Source: Ipomoea triloba
Lineage: Eukaryota > Streptophyta > Magnoliopsida > Solanales > Convolvulaceae
Length of the DNA stretch: 64,000 bases
Reading direction: 5' to 3'
Assembly: GCF_003576645.1 (NCBI RefSeq)
Contig: NC_044919.1
Location: 20,149,068 to 20,213,067, forward strand
Both the position numbers and the translations under genes were made by a program. Positions 8,747-63,027 of the stretch are shown one piece after another. Positions within the stretch are counted from its first letter, which is position 1; the number at the start of each line of letters is the position of its first letter. The notes beneath the pieces are model-generated. The model was not told where the DNA came from. It did not search any database and saw only the letters and a list, made by a program, of their open reading frames with translations.

Positions 8747-8857
8747 GTCTACCCTCCTTAAAAATAGTTTCGTCCCCGAAACTTACTTCCTAGCATCTAC
8801 GGTTTCACAGAAGACCGCTTCCTACTTTCATGCACACATTCGACATTTATCACTTCG

Positions 8858-9311: not shown

Positions 9312-9971
9312 CTAGGAATCATTCCAACGCTCCTATAAGTCCAAGGGATCAGTATTAGACCGGGCGATGACCACTGAACCCGAGTTGAACGATCCAAGTG
9401 GTCAGTCAAAAGTGGAGAAAGGATACTCTGAGGCCTCACACTCACTTTCTATCTAGGACCAAGTGGATTTTTAAATATGAATGTAGTTACGCTGTAGCTA
9501 CGGAAAGGAGATATGTGACAAGTAGTGAAAATACCCAAAGGTTGTGGGTGATCTCTCTTTGAAAGGTGAAAAGTGATGAGAATTCCCTTTTGAGGGAAAG
9601 TTTTTGCAAATAAAGTGATTGAGAGCAAGGTGTGGAATTTGTGTTTTTCCATTACTTGCTTGCATGCCTAAATGTTTAGCCTTATATTCTTTGGGTGAGT
9701 AAATGATCTTCAAATGACCTCGTCTAGAGGGAAAATGATTCAAGATGATGTTGAATTTTGCCTAATATGTTTGCAAGTTGCCATTTATAACTGTTGCAGG
9801 TAGAATCCCTGCTGATGAGTAAGGTATAGGGTTTCCATGTAAAAAGTTTTACCAAAACCTTTATTTAGTTTTGAATAACCCGCGGATATCCTTGCTTAGC
9901 CGTCGCGCTAACTACACTTCGATGTGTTTTTTAACAGATGATGAGCGATGAAAGTTCATCTGAGTTTGGGG
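9312..9971 (+). mobile_element. Chromovirus LTR fragment, plus orientation
   Basis: GCTAGGAATCATTCCAACGC and the following 660 bp match the 3' half of the plus LTR at 13368-13994 and the complement of 15095-14480. It ends at the N at 9972, inside the start of the LTR-encoded ORF. Confidence 0.75.
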
Positions 9972-9972
9972 N

Positions 9973-11595: not shown

Positions 11596-11604
11596 TTTTA
11601 ACAG

Positions 11605-12006
11605 ATGATGAGCGATGAAAGTTCATCTGAGTTTGGGGTTCCACAGATGATGAGCGATGAAAGTTCATCTGAGTTTGGGGTTCCAGTGATGATGAGCGAT
11701 GAAAGTTCATCTGAGTTTGGGGTTCCAGTATTGGAGAGCGATGAAAGTTCATCTGAGTTTGGGGTTCCAGTATTGGACTACGATGAAAGTTCATCTGAGT
11801 TTGGGGTTCCAGTATTGGACTATGATAACTATGTGCAGTTCTTGTTAGATGACGATCCCTATGTTCCTGGCTGCGCTACTGACCCTCCTGCTCCTCCCTC
11901 TCCGAAGTATACTCCTTTTTGTGTATATATCTTTTGTAGCCATGCTAATTCCAAATGGCTAGTAAAGGTCGGGTCTAGCTCAAACTTCTTTATGGGCTGT
12001 AATTAA
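11605..12006 (+). CDS. LTR-embedded ORF with 42-bp repeats
   Basis: 133 residues from ATG 11605. Five 14-residue repeats (MSDESSSEFGVPV type, 42 bp each) precede DYDNYVQFLLDDDPYVPGCA and a proline-rich stretch. An additional upstream repeat begins at ATG 11563 but reaches TAA after 12 codons. The ORF follows a TTTTTTAACAG sequence that looks like a splice acceptor, and lies in the 3' part of a plus-strand chromovirus LTR. The YVQF...DPY.P block recurs in the ORF at 21976-22413 of a divergent LTR. No known function; acidic and probably disordered. Whether it is translated is unknown. Confidence 0.5.
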   Translation: MMSDESSSEFGVPQMMSDESSSEFGVPVMMSDESSSEFGVPVLESDESSSEFGVPVLDYDESSSEFGVPVLDYDNYVQFLLDDDPYVPGCATDPPAPPSPKYTPFCVYIFCSHANSKWLVKVGSSSNFFMGCN

Positions 12007-12053
12007 ACCATGGTACCTTTTAGTAGCTAACTTAGCTACTCTTTTACTGATGC

Positions 12054-12099
<46 letters not shown>

Positions 12100-12288
12100 T
12101 GATGGTTATGATTACGGGGTACAGTTTCTTCATCTTTAGCCTGTGCACCTAGAGTGGATTCTTCTTGTATTTGATTGGGTTCAGTCTAGGTGTGGCGGTA
12201 ACTACTCCGGTTGTTCGGTACAGCCGAGCAAACCTTGGATAATAAGAAGGAAGTTTCGAGGACGAAACTCTTTTTAAGAGGGGTAGAG
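12007..12288 (+). other. LTR 3' part joined to an internal 3' end with polypurine tract
   Basis: Contains an (AT)n tract (12057-12096) and LTR sequence (GTGCACCTAGAGTGGA, TGTGGCGGTAACTACTCCGG). Near 12233 it switches from LTR to internal 3' DNA (GTTTCGAGGACGAAACTC) and ends with the polypurine tract AAGAGGGGTAGAG just before the LTR at 12289. The switch lacks the normal GGGGTGTTACA terminus, so it is a recombination junction. Confidence 0.65.
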
Positions 12289-14257
12289 TGTAATACCCCG
12301 TATTTTCCTAACATTATTATTTTATCCTAAGGCGTTGACATTCATAAGTTATGATCTTCAGATATTTCAAAAGAATTTTTATAAGTGAGTATAGTTGTTA
12401 TTAAGCTGCGATCGTACGTCCCGGTCACGAACCGTAAAAACATTGTAGGAGCTAGTATTCGGACCCGTTTGTCCTAGGAAATGGATTTTTAGACACCATA
12501 CTATTATTCTGGAATTTCCTATTTAATTAAATTAGCCTATAGCAGCAAAAATTTATTTTTGATCGTACATCGCGAAATTTCGCGGTGTACCGAACCTAGC
12601 CCAATTTTGAGTTTCAGTCTGAGATAAATTTTTAGTTTCGGAATTATTCCTATTTAAATTATTTCCTACCGAAATTATATCTGTTTTGACCCTTACCAGT
12701 CCAATTGAAGATATTTTTCTTGAGTTACCATAAGATTTTGACACTTGTCACCATTTCTAGCCACATGTTATTATTTAATTAATTCTTGAAGATGATCCAA
12801 ATAATGTGGCTTATCCTACAAGCTCCCTCATATAATATATAAGCTTTGTCTTTAATTTTTTTTCCATTTCCCTTCAAATTGCCGAAATCAAAGAGAGAGA
12901 GAGAAAGTGTGATCATCTTCATCTTCTTCACCATTTTTTCCTCTATTAAAGCTTGCTTCCATAGCCAAGTTTCTTAACAAGTGTCAAACTATTCGGTAAA
13001 ACTTCAATTTTATTCGGTGGAAAGCTTTGTTTTTCCTCCTAGAGCATGAATCTAAGCTTAAGTTCTTAATATTTGTTGTTATGGTGTTGATTTTGATCTT
13101 AGGGTTTTGAGTAGATTGGGGGAAAAGATCCAAAATTCATCCTACGGTGTTAATATACTCTCAAGGAGGTAAGGAATCCCTTTATTTGGTTGAGGTTATT
13201 TGAAACTAGATAATTGATAGCTAGGTTGTGAATTGTGGTTGATTGGTGTACATGAAATCTATGTGTTATGTGAAAATTATGTGTTTAACTTGAGGAACTC
13301 TTAGATGGTTCAAGAAATTACTCTTTGAATTTTTNGTCGTTCTTATGAACCTAGTGAGGCTAGCTAGGAATCATTCCAACGCTCCTATAAGTCCAGGGGA
13401 TCAGTATTAGACCGGGCGATGACCACTAAACCCGAGTTGAACGATCCAAGTGGTCAGTCAAAAGTGGAGAAAGGATACTCTGAGGCCTCACACTCACTTT
13501 CTATCTAGGACTAAGTGGAATTTTGAAATATGAATGTAGTTACTCCGTAACTACGGGGGAGAGAGATGTGACAAGTATTTAAGTACCCAAAGGTTGTGGG
13601 TGATCTCTCTCTTTGAAAAGTGAAAAGTGATGAGAATTTCATTATGAGGGAAAGGTTTTTCTACTAAAGTGATTACATGCAAGATGTGTGATTTATGTTT
13701 CTGCTACTTACTAGTATGCTTAATTGCTTAACAATATATTTTTGGGTATGTAAATGATTACCAAATGACCTTGTCAAGAGGGAAAATGATTTGAGACGTC
13801 ATTGAATGTTGCTCATAGTGTATGCAAGTTGCTATTTATAACTGTTGCGGGTAGAATCTCTGCCGATGAGTAAGGTATAGGGTTTTCTATGTAACAATTT
13901 TTACAAAGCCTTTATTTAGTTTTGAATAACCCATGGATATCCTTACTTAGTCGTCGTGCTAACTACACTTCAATGTGTTTTCTGTTAACAGATGTTATAT
14001 AGGGTGGGTTCCTATAGCCCGATGAGCTCTGAATAGGATGGAAGTTGAGGTTGGGGTCTACTCTTTGATGTAGACAGGGATTGTTATTAATGTTGTAAGT
14101 TTAGCCTGTGCACTTAGAGTGGAGTTGTCAAAGAGGTGATAGAATTCACTCTAGGTGTGGCGGTAGCACCCAGTTTTCTGCTGATAAGATGTAAGCTTCC
14201 GCAGCATATGAATACTGATTTGTAATAAATGTAAGAGTTGAAAATTGGGGTGTTACA
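12289..14257 (+). mobile_element. Chromovirus LTR, plus orientation
   Basis: Starts TGTAATACCCCG directly after a polypurine tract and ends GGGGTGTTACA. The N at 13335 replaces about 1 kb present in the minus copy (15127-16150), so the copy is incomplete in the assembly. Its first 850 bp are the inverted counterpart of 16343-17205. Confidence 0.85.
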
Positions 14258-14267
14258 AATACCAATT

Positions 14268-17205
14268 TGTAACACCCCAATTCTCACATCTTGGATTTAT
14301 TACAAAATCCCTAATAATACATTGCGGAAGCATCTAATCAGCAGAAAACTGGGTGTTACCGCCACGCTTAGGTATCTTTCCTATACCTAAACGCACAGGC
14401 TAAACTTACAACATCGACATCCACTTCCATCCTGTCCAGAGCTCATCGGGCTACTAGAGCCCACACTAGATGACATCTGTTAATAAAACACATTGAAGTG
14501 CAGTTAGCGCGACGGCTAAGTAAGGATATCCGCTGGTTATTCAAAACTAAATAAAGGTTTTGTAAAAATGGTTACATGGGAACCCTATACCTTACTCATC
14601 AGCAGAGGTTCTACCTGCAACAGTTATAAATGGCAACTTGCACACACAATGGCAAAATCCAATATCATTTCGAATCATTTCCCCTCTAGACGAGGTCATT
14701 TATCAATTATTTACTTACCCAAAGAATGTATTGCTAAACATTTAAGCATGCAAGTAAGTAATGGAAAAAAAAACACAAATCTCACATTTTTACTCTCAAT
14801 CACTTTATTTGTAAAACCTTTCCCTCATAAGGTAATTCTCATCACTTTTCACTTTTCAAAGAGAGATCACCCACAACCTTTGGGTATTTAAATACTTGTC
14901 ACATATCTCTTTCCCGTAGCTACAGCGTAACTACATTCATATTTCAAAATCCACTTGGTTCTAGATAGAAAGTGTGAGGCCTTTGGAGTATCCTTTCTCC
15001 ACTTTTGACTGACCACTTGGATCGTTCAACTCGGGTTCAGTGGTCATCGCCCGGTCTAATACTGATCCCCTGGACTTATAGGAGCGTTAGAATGATTCCT
15101 AGCTAGCCTCACTAGGTTCATAAGAACGACTCCTACCAGAAAATAGAGTTACTATACTTAAGTGTGCACACCCCCGCAGGAGACCCTTTTCCTTCCGGGT
15201 GATATACTCGGCGAATAGATTTCGCCCACAGTATGAACTGGTCATACAATAACATAACCACCATACGGGAAGGCACTTTAAGCTCTCTATCCCGTAGGCT
15301 ACAAGACAAGGTCCTTCACCACTTTTACTAGAACTAAGGTTTGAAAACATTTTTCCACCTTTTCCCTTTTCTTGCTTTGAAAATATTTTGGACATACTTG
15401 AGTCAATTCCAATACTCGGAAATCGATTCCCTCTTTTAACCAAATCCGGAAATTTCCCTTTTCTCTTGCAAAACATTTAGATAATCCACTAACAACCCTT
15501 CACAATGGTAAATCAAGTGTAACCATTCTACACTTCCAACCCCACATTTTTCACATAAGTTCCATACTTGACACATACATCTCAATACATATAACATATG
15601 TACTTCCCAACCTTAACATAGGCATAATACACAAAATACATTTACTCTTTACATGTACATAATACCACCTCCTTATAAGAAAATTTCAGCTTGGCGCAGT
15701 CCGAAAGATTGAGCCGGTAAAAATAATTCCCGAACTCTTTTTCACTTGAAATTTTTAGGGTAGAACCCCAACTCATAGTACTTGATGTCCATAAAAAGTT
15801 TTGATCATTTTGATCCGCGAATAAACACAGAAAATTCCATTTTTGCCCTTGGCAGTGTGCTGTCCAGAAATTTTCTCTCTGGACCAGTTTTGGAAAAAAA
15901 TTCGAAAACCATACTTATACTACTCCGATCATTATGAAATTTTATATGCAGGTTCTACACTTATTGAATTACATATCTGAAGAAAATAGGATCAAAATAC
16001 CTTACCAAATTTTCCCAATAAATCTCGGAAGTTACTGCCAGAAATCTATCTTGATTTTCAATATTTTCACAAGTATAAGCCTATATGGACATAAATACAA
16101 CATATACATGCATATATTAGCTATGAACATGTACACAAAAACTACCAAAAATTCAAAGAGTAATTTCTTGAACCATCTAAGAGTTCCTCAAGTTAAACAC
16201 ATAATTTTCACATAACACATAGATTTCATGTACACCAATCAACCACAATTCACAACCTAGCTATCAATTATCTAGTTTCAAATAACCTCAACCAAATAAA
16301 GGGATTCCTTACCTCCTTGAGAGTATATTAACACCGTAGGATGAATTTTGGATCTTTTCCCCCAATCTACTCAAAACCCTAAGATCAAAATCAACACCAT
16401 AACAACAACTATTAAGAACTTAAGCTTAGATTCATGCTCTAGGAGGAAAAACAAAGCTTTCCACCGAATAAAATCGAAGTTTTACCGAATAGTTTGACAC
16501 TTGTGAAGAAACTTGGCTATGGAAGCAAGCTTTAATAGAGGAAAAAATGGTGAAGAAGATGAAGATGATCACACTTTCTCTCTCTCTCTTTGATTTCGGC
16601 AATTTGAAGGGAAATGGAAAAAAAATTAAAGACAAAGCTTATATATTATATGAGGGAGCTTGTAGGATAAGCCACATTATTTGGATCATCTTCAAGAATT
16701 AATTAAATAATAACATGTGGCTAGAAATGGTGACAAGTGTCAAAATCTTATGGTAACTCAAGAAAAATATCTTCAATTGGACTGGTAAGGGTCAAAACAG
16801 ATATAATTTCGGTAGGAAATAATTTAAATAGGAATAATTCCGAAACTAAAAATTTATCTCAGACTGAAACTCAAAACTGGGCTAGGTTCGGTACACCGCG
16901 AAATTTTGCGATGTTACGGTCAAAATAAATTTTCACCCTTGTAGTCCGTCTAATTCCAACTTAACTAAGCAGGAAGTTCATACTTAGTCATAATATGCAT
17001 AATCATCCATTTCCTAGGAAATCCGAGCTGAAAATTCGTTCCTTAAAAATTTTACGGTTCGCGACTGGTACGTATGATCGCAGCTTAATAACAACTATAC
17101 TCCCTTATAAAAAATTCTTTTGAAGCATCGGGAGATCATCTTATGAATTTCATAGCCTAAAGACATATTTTTCGAACCTTAATCTTATAGGAATAGGGGG
17201 TTACA
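14268..17205 (-). mobile_element. Chromovirus LTR, minus orientation (near full length, 2.9 kb)
   Basis: On the minus strand it begins TGTAACCCCCTATTCC at 17205 and ends GGGGTGTTACA at 14268. The ten bases beyond its end read AATTGGTATT, a remnant of the tRNA-Met primer site, before the inverted LTR 12289-14257 begins. Together the two LTRs form an inverted repeat with a 10-bp spacer. Bases 14476-14387 on the minus strand keep the first codons of the LTR ORF (MSSSVGSSSPMSS), then stop. Confidence 0.85.
14387..14476 (-). pseudogene. Remnant of LTR-embedded ORF
   Basis: Begins ATG at 14476 in the same LTR position as the 145-residue ORF at 21976. It encodes MSSSVGSSSPMSSGQDGSG and ends at TAG after 29 codons, having lost the downstream YVQF-containing part. 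The shared N-terminus across divergent LTRs supports a real ancestral frame. Confidence 0.5.
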
Positions 17206-41549: not shown

Positions 41550-42130
41550 CTCACTCTATTTTACTCTTATTAAATTAAATAAATTAGTAGCTACAACAAA
41601 AAATGATACATATGTATTTCTTTAATTTAGAATTATGTGTCTACAATACCTTTATTTGAAAAAATTATTCATTATCAAAAAATTAAATTAAATAAGAGAA
41701 ATAATTTTATTAGTTATATTGTCTTTATTTTCTCTCATGCAAAGATTCTTTACATTTAAATTTATCAATTGATATTCATTACATTGTCTATTATCTTATT
41801 TTTACAATATCTTGTAATTAAATATCAAAGTTATAGTACAAAATAATGTTATATATTTATNCTCACTCTATTTTACTCTTATTAAATTAAATAAATTAGT
41901 AGCTACAACAAAAAATGATACATATGTATTTCTTTAATTTAGAATTATGTGTCTACAATACCTTTATTTGAAAAAATTATTCATTATCAAAAAATTAAAT
42001 TAAATAAGAGAAATAATTTCATTAGTTATATTGTCTTTATTTTCTCTCATGCAAAGATTCTTATCTTATTTTTACAATATCTTGTAATTAAATATCAAAG
42101 TTATAGTACAAAATAATGTTATATATTCAT
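41550..42130. repeat. Near-identical 0.3-kb duplication around a single N
   Basis: 41550-41860 recurs from 41862 with one substitution and a deletion of roughly 50 bp near 42060. Looks like two haplotypes or unmerged contig ends. Confidence 0.75.
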
Positions 42131-47640: not shown

Positions 47641-48505
47641 TTAATGTAATTAAAATAATTTAATTGTCTCTTCTCAAAAAAAAAAAAAATTTAATTGTCA
47701 AAATAAATTCAATTTTTTTTGTTCAATTTTCAATCAAATATTAATATTAATTTACTTTTTCAAATGGATTAAATTCAGTGCCGTTTAATTTCCAGTTAAT
47801 TATTTTTTTAATATTCTTTTTTTGAACTATAATTTCACCTCTGAACATGGTATGAATATACGAATAAAACAACTACATATTTAAAGTAATGTAAAACCAT
47901 GAAATGTTAAGATTTAAACAAATTACACAAATTTAAAATTTGAAATCTTTAATGCCCAAAAACATAAAATGTCTATGATTTCAACAGGAAAATATTTTAT
48001 TAATTGCTTCTCAACTTTCACATCTCTTAACANCAAAAAAAAAAAAAAGAAGAGATAAGATAAGAACAGTAAAAAAAAAAAGTAAATATGTCACACTTTT
48101 ATGGAGAATGGTGGTTCTTCCTATGTACATTGATGCTTTCAGAAACGAAAAACAACAAACTAAGAGAGTATAAAATTGGTGGTGGTAGTTGGCTGGTTTT
48201 CTTCTTGTATTTATAGCCATAAAGAGATAGAGGTAGAGCTATTATTGGTAATTGGTAATAAATAAATGGAATTGTAAACAAATATATATTGGAATATATA
48301 ATATATATGGAATTCAATTATAATTAATAGAATTCCATACAATTATAACTAATATATTTTTATATATTATTATATAGATATAGATATAGATATAGATTAT
48401 TATTCTACCATAATAAATAAATAAATAAATCTATACCATAAACATTTGTCAGTGGTATTACATTAATGAACGTATATGTATACGTATATGTATTAATCTA
48501 TAAAA
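47641..48505. other. AT-rich sequence, no gene
   Basis: A- and T-homopolymer runs, N at 48033 and a (GATATA)n run near 48375. Minus-strand frames here are low-complexity. Confidence 0.6.
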
Positions 48506-48838
48506 TATAAATATAGGGAAAATCGCAGTTTTGGTCCCCCAATTAGTATCAATTCTGCAATGTTGTACTCATCTCCCAATTTGAACACATTTGGTCCCCC
48601 AGTTATTGACCCATTAGTCAATTTAGTCTCTCCGTCAGTTGACAACCGTGACCTCCGTTTAGACCATGGGTAATTAAGGAATNCATTACATTGAATATAA
48701 TACGCTACTTTCTTCCCCTTCCTCCGCCGAGTCGACCATTTCCGCCACCTCTGGACTTCAACCCTAAACCCGTATAACAGTTGTAACCCATTCGAAAAGA
48801 GCCGCCATTGACGCCATTGAGGACGCTATTGCTGAGCA

Positions 48839-51800
48839 ATGACTAGTAGGAGGATTAGTGGGTTTGATACTACTCCTACCTGTAAGTAATCGAACCTAAT
48901 TTTTTAGAACTATATGTTTGTTTGTTTTCTAGTTCGCATATGCAGTGTATATATATTGTCGGGTTCTTTATGTTAATGTTTGGTGGGGGCCTATGTTGGG
49001 TTCTTTATGTTAATGTTTGGTGGGGGCCTGTGTTGAATAGAAAAAGGGTAGAAAAAGGGGAAAAGCATACATTGTTGAATATAAAAAGGGGAAAGCATAT
49101 GGGGACCATTTTGTTGGGTTGTTATGTTAAACCAAACACACTGTCAATTTTTCAATAGTTCATTTAAAGCAGTGCATAAAGTCTGTGTTGTTATTGTTTT
49201 GTGGGGACCAATGGAATTTGCCTATTTGACTTGAAGTAGTTGTTAGGTACTGTAAATATTACTTCTTTTACTGTTTTGTATAGATGTTGGTGAAGAACCC
49301 TCTGTCTTTACCATAAAACTCCATATTGGTGGAGATTTAGTATGGCATCCAACCACTGGTTATAAGGATGGAGGAGTTGAGTACTTTGACCATTTCAACT
49401 GCCATGAGGGTAGTTTACTAGATTTAAGGAGAATGGTAAAGCAACTCAGGTTTTGTGATAAAAAGGTGCAGTTTTGGGTTCTGGTTAAGGGTAAGGGTAG
49501 AAAGAACTCAAGAAAACCTGAACTTAAGCCTTTAATAAATGATGCAGACATTGTCAATTTAGTTGGAGATGTTCCACCTAACAAGGAGTTAGATATTTTT
49601 GTTGAACATTTATTTGATGATCAATGGGATTACGATGTAGAGATATCTAGGGAATTGGGAGATGATTGCTTACTATATGATGAGAGTAGTGAGAATGAAG
49701 TTGAGGTTGAGCAAGAAAGTGAAAATGAAGTTGAGGAAGACAACCTTATAGACTCTGGGACTAGTTCTAAGCAGGTTAATCCTAAGACTGGGCTGGACTG
49801 TGATGAGGTACAGGAAGTTGATTGTGAATTGTCTGAAGAGGTGTTGAGGAGTTTGGAGAATTCAGATGACTCTGATGGGGAATTGAATGTACTGGAGAAT
49901 GTTTTCCAAGAGAGTGACCTTAAAAAAGAAGGCTTTAAGTTTGTGATTGGAATGATTTTCAAATCAGCAGATGAGTTTAAATGGGCTGTTAAGTATCATG
50001 AGGCAACAAGGAGAAAGGATATCCATTTTATAAAGAATGAAGGCAGGAGAGTAAGGGTGATTTGTAGACACAGTAGCATATGCAAGTGGACTATTTTTGC
50101 CTCAAGAAGCAATCCAGGAAGTCCATTTGCTGTTAAGACTTACTGTCCAGAGCACACATGTGGGGATCAAGATGAAAATAAAACAGTGAATTCTGGTTTT
50201 CTTGCCAAAATGTATAAAGATGACATCAAACTGAACACTGAATGGGGGAGAACACAGTTTCAAGAACATGTGAAGGCAAAGTTGAAATGTCATGTAAGTA
50301 AACACCAAGCTTATAGGGAAAAGCACAAGGTTCTAAAGCAACTAGAAGGGGATGATTCAGAGCAGTTCAAGCTACTTAACAGTTACTGTGATGAATTAAG
50401 AAGAAGCAACCCTAGAACTTATGTGAAGATGAAGGTTGACAGTGAGTTTAGTGTGAATGGAAGACCTAGGTTTCTGAGATTATATATTTGTTTTGCAGCC
50501 TGCAAAGAAGGATTTTTGAGGGGCTGTAGACCCTTTTTTGGGTTAGATGGTTGTCATCTAAAGGGTGCCCAGAAGGGAGGGCAGTTGTTGACTGCTGTAG
50601 GTGTAGATGGAGATAACAGCTTGTTCCCTATAGCCTTTGCTATTGTTGAGGGAGAATTAAAGGATAGCTGGACATGGTTTTTGGAGCAATTGGATAATGA
50701 TCTTGATATATCAAGTAATCCTAATGCTTAGACACTTATTTCAGACAAACAAAAAGGACTTATACCAGCAGTTGAAGGCATGTTTCCTGGAATGGAGCAT
50801 AGATTTTGTGTAAGGCATATGCATGCCAACTTTGTCAAGGATGGTTTCACTGGGAATGTACTGAAGCAAAAACTGTGGGCAGTGTGTAAAGCAACAACAG
50901 AGGCAGAGTACAAGAAGCAATTGGATGAATTAAAAGAGTTAAATGCTAAGGCTGCTGATTGGTTAGCTGCAAGAGATGCTAAACACTATTGTAAGGCATA
51001 TTTCAGTACATTTCCTAAGACTGACATGCTTTTGAACAATTTGTGTGAATAATGGAATAGCAGTATCCTAAATTTCAGAGACAAACCTATTTTAACACTG
51101 TGTGAGAGATTAAGAATCTACCTTATGACTAGAATGCAAAAAAATAGAGAAAGGTTGAAGAGTCATAGTATGAAGATTTGTCCCAAGATATGCAAGTTGA
51201 TTGAACAAGAAAAGGATAGGGCATCAAGATTCATTACTTATAAGTCTCATGAAAACATTTACCAAGTTGATGATGAGGACTTTAAGGCCTACAGGGTGGA
51301 TTTAATGAATAGAAATTGCAGTTGTAGAAGATGGGACCTCACAGGCATCCCTTGTAGTCATGCCATTGCAGCTATAAGAAAACAAAGAGAAAGTCCAGAA
51401 GACTATGTACACAACTGTTATACAGTGGAGGCTTATTTGAGAGCATATGAGCCTGCAATTCAGCCTATCCTATCTTCAGTGTTGTGGCCCAAGTCCAATC
51501 TTCCAGATCCACTCCCCCCAAAATATAAGGCACAACCCGGGAGACCTAAGAAAAAGAGAAAGATCAACCCAATTGAAGAAAGCAAGAAAGGTACCACTGA
51601 AATGAAGACAAGGAAAGTTGGGGAAGTGAAAAGGTGCACTGTTTGTGGAGTTCAAGGCCATAATAAAAAAACTTGCAAAGGACTCAATCCACAGGTATTT
51701 TGTAAGTTCAATATATGTTATTCATTCTGGCCATAAGAGATTTTATTATGATAATGTTATGGACTGCTTTTGACTGTTGTAGGGAACTGATATGGATGAG

Positions 51801-52189
51801 GTAATTGCTGGGGAGAGTGATGTAGGAATTGAAGGCCAGTTTGAGGATATAGCAGTTGAGACACAAGTCCCATCTTTTGTTCTTGAGGAGATGGTAAGTA
51901 CTAAACAAGTTTCATGAAATATTACTAGTATTATCTCAGTTCTAGTTACAATTTTTTTTTACTGAAATTTCAGGAGGTAATGAACTCTCAACCATCACAA
52001 GTAGTTCTGAACCAAGGCCCTCCAATGTCAAGCTTTATATCTTCTCAAATGCCAACTGGAAGTAGCAACCCCAGTGTCATCACAAGATTAGGGAGAAACT
52101 ATGTAACTGTGGCAACCCTACAACAATCAAAAGCAGTCCAGAGAGAAACCAGAAAAAAGAAAGCAATTGAAAAGAAGAAGCAAAACTGA
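48839..52189 (+). pseudogene. MULE transposase (mudrA-like), four exons, two in-frame stops
   Basis: Exons 48839-48881, 49284-51694, 51783-51893 and 51974-52189, all with GT-AG borders and consistent phase. Domain order: N-terminal PB1-like region (FTIKLHIGGDLVWHP), acidic linker, MuDR DNA-binding domain (GFKFVIGMIFKSADEFKWAV), then the MULE catalytic core. The core shows GCRPFFGLDGCHLKG and AVGVDGDNSLFPIAFAIVEG with two acidic residues. A SWIM finger (NRNCSCRRWDLTGIPCSHAI) and a CCHC knuckle (CTVCGVQGHNKKTC) follow, then a Gln/Lys-rich tail. Stops at TAG 50729 and TAA 51050 interrupt the core region; otherwise the frame is open. It would cut and join element ends; this copy needs another source of enzyme. 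Confidence 0.9.
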
Positions 52190-52239
52190 CATTGGTGTTG
52201 CCTGGAAGTTGGATGTATTGCAAATATTTTGAACACATT

Positions 52240-52860
52240 ATATTAGGGAAAACTGACATTTGGTCTGGTTTGGAGATTTGGAAATATTTTGTTAATATTA
52301 GATTAGGGAAAACTATGTCCCTTTGGTCTGGTTTGGTGATTTAGAAATATTTTTGTGAATATTAGATTAGGGAAAACTATGTCCCTTTGGTATGTGTTTG
52401 TAAACCAAGCTAATGTGTTAATGAATTGCTTTTGTCTAGTTTGTGGCTGTTGTTTTATTTGAATATGTTTGACAGGGTTGGTCATTTCTAAACACTAAAC
52501 CAAGCTGCAGTGTTAATGAATGAATTGCTTTTGGTTTGGTTTGTGGCAAATATTTTATTTGAATATGTTTGACAACTTTGGTCATTTCTAAAGACTAAAC
52601 CAAGCTGCAGTGTTAATGAATGAATTGCTTTTGGTTTTAAACCAAGCTGCAGTGTTAATGAATGAATTGCTTTTGGTTTGGTTTGTGGCAGCAGTGTTAA
52701 TGAATGAATTGCTTTTGGTTTGGTTTGTGGCAAATATTTTATTTGAATATGTTTGACAGCTTTGGTCATTTCTAAACACTAAACCAAGCTGCAGTGTTAA
52801 TGAATTGCTTTTGGTTTGGTTTGGTTTTAGTGGTTTTAAACAATACTGACAACTTTGGTA
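52240..52860. repeat. Tandem repeats between the convergent MULE genes
   Basis: TTAGGGAAAACTATGTCCCT-type units (three copies, 52243-52390) are followed by five or more copies of a block containing AAACCAAGCTGCAGTGTTAA and GAATTGCTTTTGGTTTGGTT (52430-52830). They occupy the shared 3' region of both genes. Confidence 0.85.
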
Positions 52861-53042
52861 AGCAAACTAATGTACTCTGTTAAACAATACTGACAGGAGT
52901 TTCAATATGTAAGCCAAGTAATGCAACATGCCATTCAACATAGAAGTTGAGTTGGTTTAGCAGTGTTCACCCACAAAAAAAAAAACACATTGCTTACATA
53001 GTGAAATGCTACATCACTACCACTACCACTAATGTTTCAATC

Positions 53043-53546
53043 CTAGTTGAGTTGGAAAAACTTTGGAGTTGGTTCACCAGTGTTCCCCCACACCTTCAAA
53101 CAAACAAGGGCAACTACAATTCCAACTGTAAACCCATAACAAAACTGAAATTTAGATTCCAACATCATCTTCTTAATCACACCATTGTCTTTCTCAATTA
53201 CAGTTTGTAGCCTTTTGATTTCATTGTCCTTCTTGTCCAACCTCTTCAACAACCCTCTAATAATTCTGGATACACGTTCGGAGACATCGGAGTCAATCCA
53301 TTCAAAAAACCAACAATTCCCATTACCCTGAAATTAAGGTATGGAGTTAAATTGTCATTCGAAACTTTCACAAATGGATTTAAAGTAAAATGCTTAAACT
53401 GTTATACTTACTCCATAATGTGGACAAGCTCTATATCTCTTCCCTGGATTGGCATCACTCCACGACATCTTTATCGGTGCCACTTCTCCGCACCAACAAC
53501 GCACTTCGGGCATCCATTGCGTTGATTTGATAGAGCTTGAAGACAT
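53043..53546 (-). CDS. GRF-type zinc finger, coiled-coil, membrane protein in MULE
   Basis: Two exons, 53546-53412 (45 codons) and 53327-53043 (94 codons plus stop), joined in phase 0 by a GT-AG intron. The 139-residue product is intact. Residues about 17-60 form a GRF zinc finger: RCWCGEVAP, then NPGKRYRACP, then GNCWFFEWID, with the finger split by the intron. A charged coiled-coil helix follows (LLKRLDKKDNEIKRLQTVIE), then a hydrophobic segment FTVGIVVALVCL likely to span a membrane, and a short tail. It starts about 105 bp inside the right TIR and converges on the transposase, the layout of maize MuDR mudrA/mudrB, though it is not related to mudrB in sequence. Function is unknown. Confidence 0.8.
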
Positions 53547-54129
53547 TGTCGAGCTTGGACCTGCTTCTATTCAAACGGGTTAGGGTTGAAATCCAATGGT
53601 TGCGAAAATGGTAGACTTGGCGGAGGAAGGGAAAAAATAAGTTTGCTTTTGTTCTAACTGGTTAGGGTTGAAGTCCAGAGGTGGCGGAAATGGTCGACTC
53701 GGCGGAGGAAGGGGAAGAAATAAGCGTATTATCTTCAAGGCAATGTGAAATTCCTTAATTACCCATGGTCTTAACGGAGGTCACGGTTGTCAACTGACGG
53801 AGGGACTAAATTGACTAATGGGTCAATAACTGGGGGACCAAATGTGTCCAAATTGGGAGATGAGTACAACATTGCAGAATTGATACTAATTGGGGAACCA
53901 AAACTGCGATTTTCCCTATAAATATACTATCATAATAATTTTATTTTTTGAAAAAATCATAATAATTAATTACCATAAACATTTTTCAGTGGTATTACAT
54001 TAATGCATGTATATGTATTAATCTATAAAATACAAATATACTATCATAATAATTTTTTTTTGATAAAACACTATCATAATAATTAGCATAATTACTAATA
54101 AGGAATTACCATAATTACTAATAACTAAT

Positions 54130-55937
54130 TGTTGGTCCCAAGGGGATGGGGTACAAGTCTAGAGGGGGGGGGGGGGNGGGGGGGGGGGGGTGAATAGACT
54201 TGTATAAGATTTTGCAAATCTTTTTCGACTTCTCGTGTGTATTGGACTTAGGATGTTTAGGTCCGATACCTCATAAGATGAAGACAAAGTTTTATGCGCA
54301 GCGGAAAGGTTATCCCCTTTTAGTTAGCATGAGTTTGAGTTAGTTCGAGAGGTGCGGTTATATGTAGTGCAGTTCGAGAGTTAGATAGCGAGAGATAAAA
54401 GCAGAAAGTAAATGCGAGAGAGATTTTTAAGTGGTTCGGCCAACCTGCCTACATCCACTCTTCTTCCAGAAACTCCCTGGAAGGATTGCACTAAAACTTC
54501 CCTTTTTAGTACAATATCGAGCGCTTGAGCTTTGATCACGAAGCCCGCCTCAAGCCTCAGGTTTTTCGCCCCGCTTCTTGTTACTCCACCTATCGAGCAC
54601 TTGAGCTTTGATCACCAAGCCCGCCTCAAGCCTCAGGATCTTCACAAGACAGCTCCTAGGTTACTCCGCCTCTCCTCAGGTTTTTCTCCCCGCTTCCAGT
54701 TACTCCACCTCTCGAGCAGTTGAGCTTTGATCACCAAGCCCGCCTCAAGCCTCAGGATCTTCACTAGACAGCTGCCAGGTTACTCCGCCTCTTCTTGCTT
54801 AATCCAAAGCAAGGACCTTTGGTTGTCACAGTTGAGTGTAACAAGCTCCAATCTGACCAAAAGCTATCGTTGAATCAACTTCGATGTAGAGCTGCTTCGG
54901 TCACCTTCTAGATGTATAGCAGTTTAAGCTTTGTAACTCTCTCAAACACTAAGATGTGTTTTCTCGCTATTTTGAATATCAGGATGATATTCCGGATTGA
55001 GCTCAGGCACTTGAACGTTTTAAATAGACACCTCTTAAGATTTTCAGAATGAACTTACTTCTTCTGACCAAGACTTCCCCCTCTCTCTTTTAACTTGTGT
55101 CTTCACGTCCTTTTTATATGAGAGTTAAGGAATAATTCCGTTGGAGGGAAAATTATTCCGTTTGAAATTTGTCTCCCATGATGTGTATGGGACTTGCATC
55201 GTTTCAGCATTTTTCATGGAGTGGTGGTCTTGTAACTTGAACCTTTTGTTTGGTAGTGGATATTCCATAATCCACTTTCTTGAGTCCATGCTCCACTTGC
55301 TACTTTTGGTAAAAGTTACTCTTTTTAAATTCCCATTGATCCTCGTTTTAGGGAATAAGACTAACTTTGGACTAGTGCACCTTCTATCCGTTTGTTGTGG
55401 AATTCTGATGTGGCATCCACTTCTGGCACCTCCTTAATATTTTATCTCCATGATATTCTTCTTCTCCAAACTTTATTCATGCTTCCTGACCGTCATTCAG
55501 CCTTTTGGAGAAATGTCAGTTTATCGAGACCAAGATTAATGTCTCGATTTTTTGATGTCTTGATCCCCATGTATCGAGAGATCTATCTCTCGAACTCTGC
55601 TTATGTCTCGAACTGGGTTATTGTATCGAGAGATCCTATCTCTCGGACTCTGCTTATGTCTCGAGACTTAGTTGATGTCTCGCAGACCCTTATTCCTCCA
55701 GTGTTGTCCCGTGCCTTCTTCTGATCTATCTATGGGATTACAACACGAGACTTTCTAAGATGTTCACACAAGTTTACCTTAAGCTTAAATATTTTCTGAG
55801 TTGAGCTCAAGTTACCCGGTTGTATTTTCGCTCTTAGTTTACTTGTCGAACTTACATTGATTCCTATCTTTCGAGACTTAGGGGATTCTAAGATACATTT
55901 TGGTATCATCAAAACCTAATACATTATGTTCCTAACA
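54130..55937 (-). mobile_element. Copia (SIRE-like) solo LTR with 5-bp TSD
   Basis: Ends TGTTGGTCCC and TTCCTAACA; CTAAT flanks both sides (54125-54129 and 55938-55942). It is the inverse of the LTR just before the primer site at 58102. It carries an expanded G tract with an N (54164-54190; only seven C in the other copy) and tandem units with TTGAGCTTTGATCACCAAGC (54520-54800). A TCTCGAGAC-rich stretch lies at 55510-55690. No internal region. Confidence 0.88.
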
Positions 55938-57411: not shown

Positions 57412-58099
57412 AATATGTGTTTTTGAGAGAGTAACATAGCTACAACTCATATACATCTAGAAGGTGATCAAAGCTGCTCAACAAAGAAGATTATCCAACG
57501 ATAGCTCTTGATCAGATTGGAGATTGTTACACAACCTGTGAAAACTGGAACAACCTTGCTTTGGAGAAGGCAAGAAGAGGCGGAGTAACCTGGGAGTTGT
57601 CTTGTGAAGATCTTGAGTCTTGAGGCGGGCTTGGTGATCAAAGCTCAAGTGCTCGAGAGGTGGAGTAACAAGAAGCGGGGTGAAAAACCTGAGGCTTGAG
57701 GCGGGCTTCGTGATCAAAGCTCAAGCGCTCGATATTGTACTAAACAGGGAAGTTTTAGTGCAATCCTTCTAGGGAGTTTCTAGAAGAAGAGTGGACGTAG
57801 GCGGGTTGGCCGAACCACTTAAAAATCTCTCTCGCATTTACTTTCTGCTTTTATCTCTCGCTAACCTATCTCTCGAACTGCACTGCATATAATCACACCT
57901 CTCGAACTAACTCAAACTCGTGCTAATTAAAAGGGGATAACTTTTCCGCTGCACATAAAACTTTGTCTTCATCTTGTGAGGTGTTGGACCTAAACATCCT
58001 AAGTCCAATACACACGAGAGGTCGAAAAGATTTGCAAAATCTTATACAAGTCTATTCACCCCCCCTCTAGACTTGTACCCCATCCCCTCGGGACCAACA
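57412..58099 (+). mobile_element. 5'-truncated Copia (SIRE-like) LTR
   Basis: Homologous, in inverse orientation, to the 3' part of the solo LTR 54130-55937; similarity begins near 57412. Ends GGGACCAACA at 58099, followed by a primer site. The TGTTAGGAACA start seen in the solo copy is missing. Confidence 0.75.
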
Positions 58100-58214: not shown

Positions 58215-59779
58215 TATGGATAGCATGTTGTTGAGACATCTCCTTTTTGATCTTAGCAGGTTCGATAACTGGAAAACACGCATGCTTGCGTACTTATCAG
58301 CCCTCCATGATGAGATGGCCTTTTATAAAGTCTGGACCAGTCAAAATCCTAATGGTCAGCACTGCTGCAGAACAAACTAAAGACACACCAAAGTACGTTC
58401 CAAAACCTAAGGAAGAATGGACGAGCGATGATAAGAAGAGAAACAACCTTGACAACATTGCCAAGGACATTCTCTTCAGAGCAATAGACGAAACCGTCTT
58501 CCCCAGAGTAAGAAAGTGCAACACAGCCAAAGAGGTATGGGACACCTTGATGTTAATTAGTGAAGGTGACGAACAGGAAAAGGAGAACAAGCTCACCGTG
58601 GCAATGAAGAGATTCGAGGACTTCAAGATGAAGCCAGGAGAGAGCATCGACAGCATGGAATCTCGGTTCATGAAGCTCTCAACCGAGATCAGCGACCTCG
58701 AGAAGGAGATCCCACAGAAGGAGTTGAACCTGAAGGTCCTACGAGGCCTTACCAAGGAGTGGGAAATGAAGGTGATCACAATGCGAGATCACAGAGATCT
58801 AAAGAACACCACAACCGACTAACTCTTCTGAGATCTCAAAGCCTTCGAATTCGAGATGTTCCCGAGAGATGAGGACGTAGTGGACCGTCGGAACGTTGCA
58901 CTTGTTGCTGATCAACCATCCTCATCCTCAAGGTCAGACCCTAATCCTATGAATCTTATGTCTGACGAACAATTTGCTCTCTTCATGAGGAAGTTCAAGA
59001 AATTCATGAAGAAGAAGACACCAGAGAGCAACACAAGTTCACCTTCCTCCTCAAGAAGGAAAAATGAGAGATATCCATCCAGAAGGACGGAGGAAGACAA
59101 TCAGGGTCTATGCTACAATTGTAGAAGACTGGGACATTTCAAGGCCGAATGCCCTTACCCTCCAGTAAGCAAATATCAAGGCCAAGAAGGTAAGGATTCC
59201 AAGAGAATGGAGGAGTCTAGGGAGAAGCCAACACAAGGTGGCTTCAAAGGAGCATCAAAGACACATTTGCGCAGGAAGGCGCTTGTTGCTGAGGAACTCG
59301 AGAAGGCAGTCGAGGAATCCAAGACATCGAGCTCAAGCGAAGATAACAGCAGCTCAGAGGATGAGAGGGGGCTCATCTACCTATACACTACAGAAGAGGA
59401 GGATCAATGCTTAATGGCCATAGATAATGAGGTAACCTCCACTTCTACATCTCGCTGCTCTACTTCTACCTCTCGATGTTCTTCTTTTAGAAGCGATGAG
59501 GACCCCTTCGAGACCATAGAATTGCTTGGAAGGGATCTCAATATCGCTAACAGCACTCATGCTAAGATAATGGAAGAAAACAGCAAGCTAATTGCTGAAC
59601 GAGAGATGCTTAAGAATGTCTCAAAAGAGAATTCAGAGCTAACTCTCAAAATAAGCAACTTAGAAGCTGAAATAATCCAGCTTAAGGAAGAGTGCAAAGC
59701 TCGAGAGACTAGAGAGCTTAATCTTAGAGAGGTCATTGCATCATACACTAATTCCTCCAAAGTTATGGAGAAATGGTAA
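58215..59779 (+). pseudogene. Copia SIRE/Maximus-type gag with frameshifts
   Basis: ATG 58215 opens MDSMLLRHLLFDLSRFDNWK and reaches a stop after a frameshift at about 58330. The second frame carries the UBN2 gag region (TSDDKKRNNLDNIAKDILFR, SRFMKLSTEISDLEKEI). After another stop (58820), the third frame has the CCHC knuckle CYNCRRLGHFKAEC, Ser/Glu-rich linkers, CLMAIDNE and a long coiled coil (ENSELTLKISNLEAEIIQLK) ending at TAA 59779. An extended gag with post-knuckle coiled coil is typical of SIRE-lineage elements. Gag would form the particle shell. This copy is decayed. Confidence 0.82.
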
Positions 59780-60449
59780 ATGATCATAGGCCTACCAGTG
59801 ACAGAACCAGTCTCGGGTTTCGTCAAAACTGTCTCTCGAGAGATAAGCAGACCAACGGTTTGGGAACTTCAAATAATGAAGGATCTCAACCCAAACCGAA
59901 TAAGGGTCGTAAATGACCAACCGAAAAGACCAGAGTAGCTATTCATAAACTGTCCCTATACACCAGCAATGGAAAGTATAGGAAAGCTACGAAGAATGGC
60001 CGGGTTAATCATATCGAGAGGTCACCTAGCCACCTCTCGCAAGGCCATTCTAAGTACAAGAGAAGCTACATTCCATATAATGCGCCTCAAGGCAAATATG
60101 GAAGGTTTGAGATCCATAAAGATAGGAACTCACGGATGTGGGAAGACAGACACTACCCATCCGATGAGGATTGGTCACAAGAATATGAACCATGGAAGAA
60201 ACCTCAGTTGCAACGGTACCACGTGACCAAACAGGCCATGAAGGGCATGTTGTGAAAATTCGAGGTCAGGCCTCAACCAAAACTGATCTATGCACCAAAA
60301 AGGCCCAGAGTCTTTGCTAGCATTTCTTATGATTATCAATCGTTTAATGGCTACATTGCACCTAAGCCTGGAGTAATGGGCTCAAGGTATAAATGGATGC
60401 CTAAACTCACTAATCATTTAGGACCCAAAGTTTGGGTACCTAAATCTGC
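59780..60449 (+). pseudogene. Decayed gag C-terminus/gag-pol junction
   Basis: No long frame; pieces across frames include MGSRYKWMPKLTNHLGPKVW followed by VPKSA, a segment that precedes protease in Copia elements. A second copy is at 61590-62259. Confidence 0.6.
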
Positions 60450-61217
60450 TTGATTTCCTTGCAGGACACCAGGGACATATGGTTCATTGACAGTGGATGT
60501 TCGAGACATATGACGGGAAATCTTACATTGCTGGAGAACATCCATCCTATCGAAGGTCCCTTGGTGACATTTGGCGACAATGAGAAGAAAGGACGCACGA
60601 AGGCTGTTGGTGAGATCCATAAGAATGAATTGGTGATCAAGGAGGTATCTTATGTTGAAGGGCTCAAGTTCAACCTCCTGAGCACAAGTCAATTTTGTGA
60701 CAAAGGCTACAAGGTCATCTTCACCAAAAGCAAGTGCCGGATCATTCAAGAGGAATCTCTCGAAGTCGTCTTGGAAGCAGCAAGGAAAGGAAACATGTAC
60801 ATAGTGGATTGGAGATCTGCCAAACCATCCCTATGTATGCTAGCAAGGAGCAAAGAAGACTTATGCTGGGATTGGCACAATAAGCTTAGTCATCTAAACT
60901 TCAAAACCATCAACAAGCTTACTAAGAGGAACTTGGTGGAAGGACTGCCTAAAGTAACGTTTCGAAAAGACAAGATTTGCGAGGCATGTCAACGTTGCAA
61001 ACAGATCAAATCCTCTTTCAAAACCAAAGCCGAGACATCGTCTACTAGACCATTAAGTCTTCTCCATATGGACTTATTTGGCCCAGTAGACCCACCCAAC
61101 ATGAGAGGAAGGAAGTACACTCTTGTGGTAGTAGATGACTACACAAGATTCACCTGGACCGTGTTCTTAACCAAGAAAAGCGAGACAAAAGTTGCCTTAC
61201 CAAATCTTCTAAGGCAA
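60450..61217 (+). pseudogene. Copia protease/integrase N-part, cut by N (duplicate of 62260-63027)
   Basis: Protease motif FIDSGCSRHMTG, the HHCC region (HNKLSHLN to CEACQRCK) and the integrase start LLHMDLFGP are identical to 62260-63027. At the N at 61218 the sequence jumps back to gag, so this is probably the same locus assembled twice. Confidence 0.8.
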
Positions 61218-61218
61218 N

Positions 61219-63027
61219 GCTTAATGGCCATAGATAATGAGGTAACCTCCACTTCTACATCTCGCTGCTCTACTTCTACCTCTCGATGTTCTTCTTTTAG
61301 AAGCGATGAGGACCCCTTCGAGACCATAGAATTGCTTGGAAGGGATCTCAATATCGCTAACAGCACTCATGCTAAGATAATGGAAGAAAACAGCAAGCTA
61401 ATTGCTGAACGAGAGATGCTTAAGAATGTCTCAAAAGAGAATTCAGAGCTAACTCTCAAAATAAGCAACTTAGAAGCTGAAATAATCCAGCTTAAGGAAG
61501 AGTGCAAAGCTCGAGAGACTAGAGAGCTTAATCTTAGAGAGGTCATTGCATCATACACTAATTCCTCCAAAGTTATGGAGAAATGGTAAATGATCATAGG
61601 CCTACCAGTGACAGAACCAGTCTCGGGTTTCGTCAAAACTGTCTCTCGAGAGATAAGCAGACCAACGGTTTGGGAACTTCAAATAATGAAGGATCTCAAC
61701 CCAAACCGAATAAGGGTCGTAAATGACCAACCGAAAAGACCAGAGTAGCTATTCATAAACTGTCCCTATACACCAGCAATGGAAAGTATAGGAAAGCTAC
61801 GAAGAATGGCCGGGTTAATCATATCGAGAGGTCACCTAGCCACCTCTCGCAAGGCCATTCTAAGTACAAGAGAAGCTACATTCCATATAATGCGCCTCAA
61901 GGCAAATATGGAAGGTTTGAGATCCATAAAGATAGGAACTCACGGATGTGGGAAGACAGACACTACCCATCCGATGAGGATTGGTCACAAGAATATGAAC
62001 CATGGAAGAAACCTCAGTTGCAACGGTACCACGTGACCAAACAGGCCATGAAGGGCATGTTGTGAAAATTCGAGGTCAGGCCTCAACCAAAACTGATCTA
62101 TGCACCAAAAAGGCCCAGAGTCTTTGCTAGCATTTCTTATGATTATCAATCGTTTAATGGCTACATTGCACCTAAGCCTGGAGTAATGGGCTCAAGGTAT
62201 AAATGGATGCCTAAACTCACTAATCATTTAGGACCCAAAGTTTGGGTACCTAAATCTGCTTGATTTCCTTGCAGGACACCAGGGACATATGGTTCATTGA
62301 CAGTGGATGTTCGAGACATATGACGGGAAATCTTACATTGCTGGAGAACATCCATCCTATCGAAGGTCCCTTGGTGACATTTGGCGACAATGAGAAGAAA
62401 GGACGCACGAAGGCTGTTGGTGAGATCCATAAGAATGAATTGGTGATCAAGGAGGTATCTTATGTTGAAGGGCTCAAGTTCAACCTCCTGAGCACAAGTC
62501 AATTTTGTGACAAAGGCTACAAGGTCATCTTCACCAAAAGCAAGTGCCGGATCATTCAAGAGGAATCTCTCGAAGTCGTCTTGGAAGCAGCAAGGAAAGG
62601 AAACATGTACATAGTGGATTGGAGATCTGCCAAACCATCCCTATGTATGCTAGCAAGGAGCAAAGAAGACTTATGCTGGGATTGGCACAATAAGCTTAGT
62701 CATCTAAACTTCAAAACCATCAACAAGCTTACTAAGAGGAACTTGGTGGAAGGACTGCCTAAAGTAACGTTTCGAAAAGACAAGATTTGCGAGGCATGTC
62801 AACGTTGCAAACAGATCAAATCCTCTTTCAAAACCAAAGCCGAGACATCGTCTACTAGACCATTAAGTCTTCTCCATATGGACTTATTTGGCCCAGTAGA
62901 CCCACCCAACATGAGAGGAAGGAAGTACACTCTTGTGGTAGTAGATGACTACACAAGATTCACCTGGACCGTGTTCTTAACCAAGAAAAGCGAGACAAAA
63001 GTTGCCTTACCAAATCTTCTAAGGCAA
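61219..63027. repeat. Apparently identical 1809-bp copy of 59409-61217 after a single N
   Basis: Offset 1810 throughout, with identical translations in all frames. The unique continuation occurs only after 63027. Likely unmerged overlap of two contigs. Confidence 0.88.

What the first reader, a model, noticed from the sequence alone, without database searches (positions are those of the whole stretch)
48516..53916. Two-gene MULE with convergent transposase and GRF-finger membrane protein
The element is fully delimited by 10-bp TSDs and roughly 265-bp TIRs. It holds a mudrA-type gene and, on the other strand, an intact two-exon gene for a 139-residue GRF zinc-finger/coiled-coil/TM protein. Each gene starts just inside its own TIR. 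The layout copies maize MuDR mudrA/mudrB but with an unrelated second protein. The transposase has two stops while the second gene is intact. The second protein may be an accessory factor or a captured host gene. I cannot say whether this pairing has been described.
Basis: partly seen in the sequence, partly recalled or inferred. Interest (0 to 1): 0.8.

Follow-up and report, generated by a model that had tools for sequence, protein, structure and literature searches.

The report
Sweet-potato jumping gene with membrane-anchor partner
This is a Mutator-type jumping gene in a morning-glory/sweet-potato genome that carries, beside its transposase, a second gene for a small zinc-finger protein with a predicted membrane anchor; relatives of the pair turn up together in other copies, so the second gene looks like a standing part of the transposon family and not a one-time capture.

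Summary
The element is real: 48516-53916 (5,401 bp), exact 10-bp duplications, TIRs 242/255 identical, and a neighbouring copy of the target without the insert. It holds a MuDR-type transposase gene with two in-frame stops and, converging on it, an intact two-exon gene for a 139-residue protein: GRF finger, long helix, C-terminal hydrophobic segment. The host is an Ipomoea.

Open question: one-off capture or family feature? The genome search did not complete, so I used database proteins. The GRF protein has 62 relatives, nearly all Ipomoea. Four of them (three locus groups) run on into the ANTISENSE of this element's transposase 3' part (E 4e-16 to 5e-10), a fifth only weakly. One of 120 transposase models carries antisense GRF exon 1 near its end (4e-9). 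I. nil LOC109193258 (transposase) and LOC109193259 (GRF) share a scaffold length. Linked cases lie in separate branches of the GRF tree: the pairing looks old.

Convergent second genes are known in plant MULEs (mudrB, PMD, Abermu ORFR); a GRF-TM second protein was not found in the papers searched. Its function is inferred; TIRs, dN/dS and transcripts of other copies are untested.

The parts
48506..48515 (.). left target-site duplication TATAAATATA
   Evidence: identical to 53917-53926
48516..48779 (+). left TIR (contains a single N at 48683)
48839..48881 (+). transposase exon 1 (ATG just inside the TIR)
   Evidence: matched from residue 1 by P0063
49284..51694 (+). transposase exon 2: DBD_Tnp_Mut, MULE and SWIM domains; stops at read-through codons 497 and 604
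51783..51893 (+). transposase exon 3
51974..52189 (+). transposase exon 4 with stop
52218..52823 (.). tandem-repeat spacer between the two convergent genes
53043..53327 (-). GRF gene exon 2 (end of finger, long helix, hydrophobic segment, C-terminal FQLN)
53328..53411 (-). GT-AG intron of GRF gene
53412..53546 (-). GRF gene exon 1 (start and most of the zinc finger)
53562..53719 (.). 76-nt direct duplication (83%) of the inner end of the right TIR
   Evidence: family D4
53650..53916 (-). right TIR
53917..53926 (.). right target-site duplication TATAAATATA
53961..54040 (+). tandem copy of the target without the element (natural empty site)

Best explanation
A MuDR-type MULE family of Ipomoea with two resident genes; in this copy each starts just inside its own TIR. 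Shown here: one complete but probably non-autonomous copy (two stops in the transposase) with an intact second gene; the same convergent GRF-transposase arrangement in other, diverged copies in I. batatas and I. nil; conservation of the finger ligands, helix, hydrophobic segment and C-terminal QL end in the complete relatives. Inferred: the TIRs act as promoters for both genes, as in MuDR; the second protein is a tail-anchored dimer whose GRF finger binds single-stranded or forked DNA, and it helps a late step of transposition (holding element or target ends, or bringing the complex to the nuclear envelope), that is, it fills the slot that MURB fills in maize without being shown to be its homologue. 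The stated confidence is for the resident-gene reading; for the helper role itself I would give about 0.45, and the second and third rivals concern only that role.
For: Anatomy. Multicopy GRF family in Ipomoea: 29 hits, all Ipomoea; 62 with the profile. Linkage in the same order and orientation: of 47 non-GRF tails of at least 20 aa from 41 of 62 proteins, P0009 (3.8e-16), P0054 (1.4e-12) and P0015 and P0048 (both 4.9e-10, one shared tail) match the minus strand of the transposase 3' part within 51089-52022, and P0057 weakly (0.001) (P0009 and P0015 alignments). Reciprocal: of 120 listed transposases one, P0068 of I. nil (855 aa), matches antisense GRF exon 1 at residues 784-813, 23/30 identical, 4e-9. 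I. nil LOC109193258 (P0083) and LOC109193259 (P0034) have consecutive numbers and the same scaffold length 845,894; P0005 (GRF) and P0076 (transposase) share scaffold length 3,601,536. Two id pairs differ by one among 14 GRF and 9 transposase ids; 1 of 200,000 random draws did as well. P0009, P0054 and P0015/P0048 fall in three different starred groups of the GRF tree and P0034 outside the starred set that holds those three. Constraint: 38 invariant columns of 139 in 12 rows at mean identity 0.591, against mean 17.9 and maximum 25 in 20 neutral runs at identity 0.583. Hydrophobic 19-mer near the C end with 12-18 residues after it in 17 of 17 chosen full-length rows, one of them scoring only 1.46. 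Model: one helix 62-127, mean pLDDT 77, pTM 0.44; first fold match the NEIL3 GRF pair. [quoted passage not shown] MuDR TIRs serve as promoters and mudrB is needed for integration (PMC8224964, passages).
Against: No DNA of other copies was available, so their TIRs, completeness and dN/dS are untested, and there is no transcript evidence. Linkage rests on chimeric gene models and gene numbers, not on genomic context that I read; orientation is unknown for the pairs seen by number. 36 of the 41 tailed proteins gave no match to the transposase antisense at E 0.05. Reversed tails gave one match at 0.001 elsewhere in the window, and shuffled tails 7 at 0.005 or better in 20 runs, so P0057 counts for little. 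119 of 120 transposases show no antisense GRF at 1e-3; the looser search adds only matches at E 0.02-0.98. In the neutral runs at higher identity (0.67) up to 41 invariant columns arose, so that test depends on matching identity. No PDB fold match reaches E 0.001 (first 0.18, probability 0.98). Many relatives are truncated or chimeric models without the hydrophobic segment. Membrane insertion and DNA binding are predictions. Rice Abermu elements without the reverse gene seem to have moved recently (PMC9168764, section 23), so such genes need not be essential.
Confidence: 0.72

Rival explanations
1. The GRF gene is a host gene captured once by this copy, hitchhiking without function for the element.
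For: MULEs often take up host gene fragments (PMC6446971, PMC9168764, passages); the transposase here is broken while the GRF gene is intact.
Against: Convergent GRF-transposase pairing in diverged copies; a multicopy, lineage-specific family; no well-conserved host orthologue outside Ipomoea turned up: among named plants only P0059 (Erythranthe, 31%) and P0061 (Lithospermum, 31%). Both searches see only relatives of similar length that share short exact words, so distant ones may be missed.
Confidence: 0.08
2. The second protein is an anti-silencing or regulatory factor (works like VANC of VANDAL elements): it keeps the element's TIR promoters active, the membrane anchor holding it at the nuclear periphery.
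For: Second genes of plant MULEs include an anti-silencing protein (PMC6446971, passages); the protein diverges between subfamilies (45-99% identity to the window's).
Against: Pfam shows no family other than GRF at E below 0.01; no VANC sequence was compared. GRF fingers bind DNA without known sequence preference (recalled), so specific targeting would be unexplained.
Confidence: 0.2
3. The GRF protein is a conserved passenger with a host-side role (for example in membrane or DNA-damage signalling) and none in transposition.
For: Tail-anchored proteins usually work at the ER or organelle membranes (recalled); a C-terminal QL[NKQS] end in 20 of 62 rows (21 pattern hits, of which P0009 is an accident of its antisense tail) points to an unknown targeting or partner signal.
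Against: Place just inside a TIR in this copy, and head-on to the transposase in the copies linked by antisense tails.
Confidence: 0.12

Closest known systems
Maize MuDR (mudrA/mudrB)
   Same: Two genes transcribed towards each other from promoters in the two TIRs; long TIRs; MuDR-type transposase; 9-10 bp TSD for the group (PMC8224964, PMC6446971, PMC9168764, passages).
   Different: The second protein here is a GRF-finger protein; mudrB was not compared by sequence. Maize versus Ipomoea.
Abermu MULEs, type II (PMC9168764; abstract passages and sections 15, 16, 23 seen)
   Same: Transposase ORF plus a reverse ORF (ORFR) between it and the 3' TIR; ORFR diverges faster than the transposase; function unknown.
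   Different: The words GRF, transmembrane and Ipomoea do not occur in the paper; 'zinc finger' occurs once, for the transposase. Complete elements are from 37 monocots and one dicot by the text. Whether any ORFR is a GRF protein was not tested.
Plant MULEs with an antisense PMD gene (several of groups 42-50 of PMC6446971, passages seen)
   Same: Second ORF antisense to the transposase, SWIM-type transposase, similar TIR and TSD sizes.
   Different: Second protein is a plant mobile domain protein; 'GRF' does not occur in the main text.
VANDAL/Hiun with vanB and vanC (PMC6446971, passages)
   Same: MULE with extra genes.
   Different: VANDALs are described as lacking TIRs or having short degenerate ones (the table gives 46-174 bp for the group); here the TIRs are 252-267 bp.
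GRF zinc fingers of NEIL3, APE2 and others (PF06839)
   Same: Finger sequence and predicted fold.
   Different: No enzyme domain; the finger is joined to a 66-residue helix with a hydrophobic end.

Membership tests
MULE superfamily | 8-11 bp target-site duplication | tested here: met
   exact 10 bp
MULE superfamily | long terminal inverted repeats | tested here: met
   242/255
MULE superfamily | MULE transposase domain, here with DBD_Tnp_Mut and SWIM | tested here: met
MULE superfamily | intact DDE catalytic triad | tested here: inconclusive
   domain matched in two pieces either side of a stop; residues not checked one by one
MuDR (mudrA/mudrB) proper | two convergent genes starting at the TIRs | tested here: met
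MuDR (mudrA/mudrB) proper | mudrB homologue | not tested
   no mudrB sequence was compared
MULE with antisense PMD gene | plant mobile domain in second gene | tested here: not met
   Pfam finds only GRF at E below 0.01
VANDAL | no or short degenerate TIRs | tested here: not met
Abermu | DNA similarity to Hvu_Abermu | not tested
   no Abermu sequence was held
GRF zinc finger (PF06839) | Pfam gathering score 25.9 | tested here: inconclusive
   25.8 for the window protein; relatives P0013 27.2 and P0059 28.4 pass, P0001 25.8 and P0022 24.1 do not, P0061 has no match
GRF zinc finger (PF06839) | four zinc ligands | tested here: met
   C17, C19, C41 in 14 of 14 rows of A1, C50 in 13 of 14; that these are the ligands is read from the family pattern, not from a structure with zinc
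Tail-anchored membrane protein | single TM within about 30 residues of the C end | tested here: inconclusive
   hydropathy only: best 19-mer 1.46-2.23 with 12-18 residues after it in 17 of 17 chosen full-length rows; no TM predictor, insertion not testable

The most novel reading that the evidence does not exclude
Membrane-anchored GRF-finger proteins are a general second protein of dicot MuDR-clade transposons: many plant genes annotated as 'GRF-type', 'DNA-(apurinic or apyrimidinic site) lyase' or 'uncharacterized' with a finger, helix and C-terminal TM would then be transposon genes, and transposition of these elements would involve a membrane-tethered single-strand DNA binding helper, a kind of helper I know of in no other cut-and-paste transposon (recalled).
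Probability: 0.25. Interest if true: 0.78.

Novelty: new variant of a known kind. Interest (0 to 1): 0.56.

Why it matters
What the second genes of plant MULEs do is an old open question (mudrB, PMD, ORFR). Here the second protein has a readable design, a DNA-binding finger on a long helix with a likely membrane anchor, which makes definite tests possible. It also suggests that many Ipomoea gene models named as DNA repair enzymes or topoisomerases are transposon genes.

Tried and rejected
Own-genome search for further TIR copies: the machine did not answer in seven tries of the same request, so copy number, TIRs of relatives and dN/dS remain open.

Viral contig collection for DNA of relatives: 27 pattern matches, none a relative. 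Genome contigs and the plasmid, phage and E. coli collections, all prokaryotic or viral, were not searched.

Other elements of this family in the window: none seen; the listed matches of the element to the window are itself, its own TIRs and its internal repeats.

One-off capture was tested first and is disfavoured on the linkage evidence. P0020's tail gave only E 0.11 and P0026's a match outside the element; P0062's match is on the other strand and overlaps its GRF part. None was counted. In one search, P0012's tail match is GRF exon 2 in another frame, and P0011, P0018 and P0055 match the GRF exon 1 region in another frame; these were not counted as links. In one search five further transposases have matches in the element outside the transposase frame at E 0.02-0.98 (P0088, P0101, P0123, P0136, P0171); not counted.

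It is a quick tree; 27 of 56 inner branches are under 80% support, and P0054 and others are long or gappy. P0057 is not on it.

Gene-number test: noticed after the fact; 14 GRF and 9 transposase I. nil ids, four more distant transposase ids of the list left out (109149253, 109159120, 109177396, 109179346); the list itself shows 120 of 208 hits. The assumed id range of 45,000 is mine. LOC109150411 appears only as a name carried over to I. batatas and I. trifida proteins.

The 17 rows of the hydropathy test were chosen by eye as complete at the C end, out of 62; two outside rows (P0059, P0061) were also run and differ (1 and 38 residues after the segment). NCBIfam gave nothing above cut-off for the GRF protein.
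Full report
WHAT IS THERE. The element runs from 48516 to 53916 (5,401 bp). The ten bases before and after it are the same, TATAAATATA, and both ends read GGGAAAATCG inward. The TIRs align over 255 columns with 242 identities. The right flank carries a tandem copy of the target in which the bases either side of the insertion are adjacent; the flanks joined in a script match it at 95 of 112 columns, 14 of them gaps. This is a natural empty-site paralogue and fits insertion with a 10-bp duplication. One caution: a single N lies in the left TIR at 48683. Of the seven other single Ns in the window, three (9972, 41861, 61218) abut duplications of 99.5-100% identity, which look like assembly joins. 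The exact TSD argues that this join is sound.

THE TWO GENES. The plus-strand gene starts at 48839, about 60-70 bp inside the left TIR, and has four exons. Pfam finds DBD_Tnp_Mut, MULE and SWIM. Read through it has 926 codons with stops at 497 and 604. Long relatives are held in the protein database: I. nil P0063 (922 aa, 79% over residues 1-913) and I. triloba P0066 (935 aa, 66%); these are gene models whose DNA I did not see. The minus-strand gene starts at 53546, about 100-115 bp inside the right TIR, and has two exons with a GT-AG intron; it encodes 139 residues. The two genes converge and are about 850 bp apart, with tandem repeats between them.

THE HOST. The best match to the GRF protein is 99% identical and is named from I. 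trifida and I. batatas (P0001), and the closest transposase piece is 97% over 347 residues from I. batatas (P0064). The window is thus from Ipomoea, probably the sweet-potato group; the species was not fixed.

IS THE SECOND GENE A FAMILY FEATURE? A single-sequence search gave 29 relatives, all Ipomoea; a profile search gave 62, of which two named ones lie outside Ipomoea (P0059 Erythranthe, P0061 Lithospermum) and three come from unnamed metagenome contigs. I then asked whether the parts of these proteins that are not GRF match anything in the window. Forty-one proteins have 47 tails of at least 20 residues. Four proteins match the minus strand of the transposase 3' part: P0009 (51958-51764 and 52022-51966, 3.8e-16 together), P0054 (51564-51421, 1.4e-12), and P0015 and P0048 (51388-51089, both 4.9e-10). 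The last two share a tail and count as one locus group. P0057 matches weakly (51539-51294, 0.001). Reversed tails gave nothing in the transposase region at 0.05, though one match elsewhere at 0.001; shuffled tails gave 7 matches at 0.005 or better in 20 runs, so P0057 is within chance. The other 36 tailed proteins show no such match. The four are gene models that begin in a GRF gene and run on into the antisense of a transposase like this one, in the order and orientation seen here. The reciprocal case also exists: of 120 listed transposases, one, the I. nil model P0068 (855 aa), has at residues 784-813 the antisense of GRF exon 1, 23 of 30 identical, 4e-9.

GENE NUMBERS. The I. nil GRF gene LOC109193259 (P0034) and transposase gene LOC109193258 (P0083) have consecutive numbers and the same scaffold length, 845,894; GRF LOC109150395 (P0005) and transposase LOC109150412 (P0076) share scaffold length 3,601,536, and LOC109150411 is the name carried over to two GRF proteins of other species (P0025, P0039). 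Two pairs differ by one among 14 GRF and 9 transposase ids; 1 of 200,000 random draws reached that. That consecutive ids mean neighbouring genes is a working rule (recalled), not a proof, the orientation is not known from it, and I noticed the pairs before I tested them.

AGE OF THE PAIRING. On a quick tree of 59 GRF rows P0009 falls in the window's own starred group of 12, P0015/P0048 in a second, P0054 in a third (a long, gappy row), and P0034 outside the starred set of 41 that holds these three. The GRF-transposase partnership therefore seems at least as old as the split of these subfamilies (45-99% identity to the window's protein). Where a pair can be named, the two members are about equally far from the window's: P0083 64% and P0034 59%; P0076 63% and the LOC109150411-type P0025 and P0039 63% and 57%.

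CONSTRAINT. In a set of 12 rows, 38 of 139 columns are invariant (one gap allowed) at a mean identity of 0.591; neutral codon evolution without stops on the same tree at mean identity 0.583 gave 17.9 on average and at most 25 in 20 runs, while at the less divergent setting (0.67) it gave 32.8 and at most 41. Invariant columns gather in the finger (C17, C19, C41, F53, W55), at the start of the helix (RGLLK), and include three in the hydrophobic part and the final QL. This shows uneven constraint and speaks for purifying selection, but it is not a dN/dS; only DNA of other copies can give that, and database proteins are biased to open frames.

WHAT THE PROTEIN LOOKS LIKE. AlphaFold2 on 19 rows with P0001 first (mean pLDDT 77, pTM 0.44) gives a small beta finger followed by one helix from 62 to 127. 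Foldseek's first match is the NEIL3 GRF pair (probability 0.98, E 0.18; nothing reaches 0.001), and a profile search of PDB sequences also puts NEIL3 first (E 0.043). The last third of the helix is hydrophobic with 12-18 residues after it in 17 of 17 rows chosen as complete, 16 from Ipomoea and one unnamed; the two outside plants differ (1 and 38 residues). Twenty of 62 rows end in QL[NKQS] (without P0009, whose end is antisense sequence).

HOW IT MOST LIKELY WORKS. By analogy with MuDR, whose TIRs are promoters for both genes and whose mudrB is needed for integration (PMC8224964, passages), I take the GRF protein as a helper of the transposase. [quoted passage not shown] A dimer through the helix, anchored in a membrane continuous with the nuclear envelope, could hold element or target ends at a late step. 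Anatomy, pairing and constraint are shown as far as the above goes; DNA binding, anchoring, dimerisation, TIR promoters and the helper role are inferred. An anti-silencing role like VANC is the main functional rival.

WHAT IS KNOWN. Plant MULEs often have a second gene antisense to the transposase: mudrB, PMD genes in several groups (PMC6446971, passages), and ORFR in Abermu, for which the authors report no known function and rapid divergence (PMC9168764, passages and sections 15, 16, 23). 'GRF' occurs in neither paper's main text, nor in a sweet-potato transposon survey (PMC3946583, passages). Searches for GRF with MULE, Mutator or transposon terms gave 0 papers, one unrelated paper, or, in a looser search, 1,383 papers of which 20 were listed, none on this pairing by title. 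Searches on MULE second genes and on Ipomoea MULEs listed nothing on it by title either. Most subscription papers and Repbase were not searched. I therefore call it a new variant of a known kind.

Noticed in passing
window 8348-11595, 41550-42062 and 59405-63027: Direct duplications of 1,623 bp (100%), 201 bp (99.5%) and 1,813 bp (99.9%), each with a single N at the junction (9972, 41861, 61218); likely false duplications from assembly joins.
   Followed up: partly
window 54184-54949 and 57419-58065: Long inverted repeat arms (about 490 bp at 95% plus 280 bp at 85%) just right of the MULE, 2.5 kb apart; may bound another element.
   Followed up: no
window 7880-17197: Nest of direct and inverted repeats of 0.4-1 kb at 74-99% identity.
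   Followed up: no
P0035, P0036, P0039, P0042, P0043, P0046, P0053: GRF proteins of one Ipomoea subfamily share another tail (VGSLAA...IKSET or similar) in place of the hydrophobic segment; it matches nothing in this window at E 0.05.
   Followed up: partly
P0001, P0002, P0008, P0062: GRF family proteins are filed in public databases as DNA topoisomerase, DNA-(apurinic or apyrimidinic site) lyase, MAP kinase kinase and MSH6-like; these names seem to come from the GRF finger or from fused neighbours.
   Followed up: partly
window 48424-48515 and 53961-54040: The element sits in one unit of an AT-rich tandem duplication of the host; the other unit is empty.
   Followed up: yes
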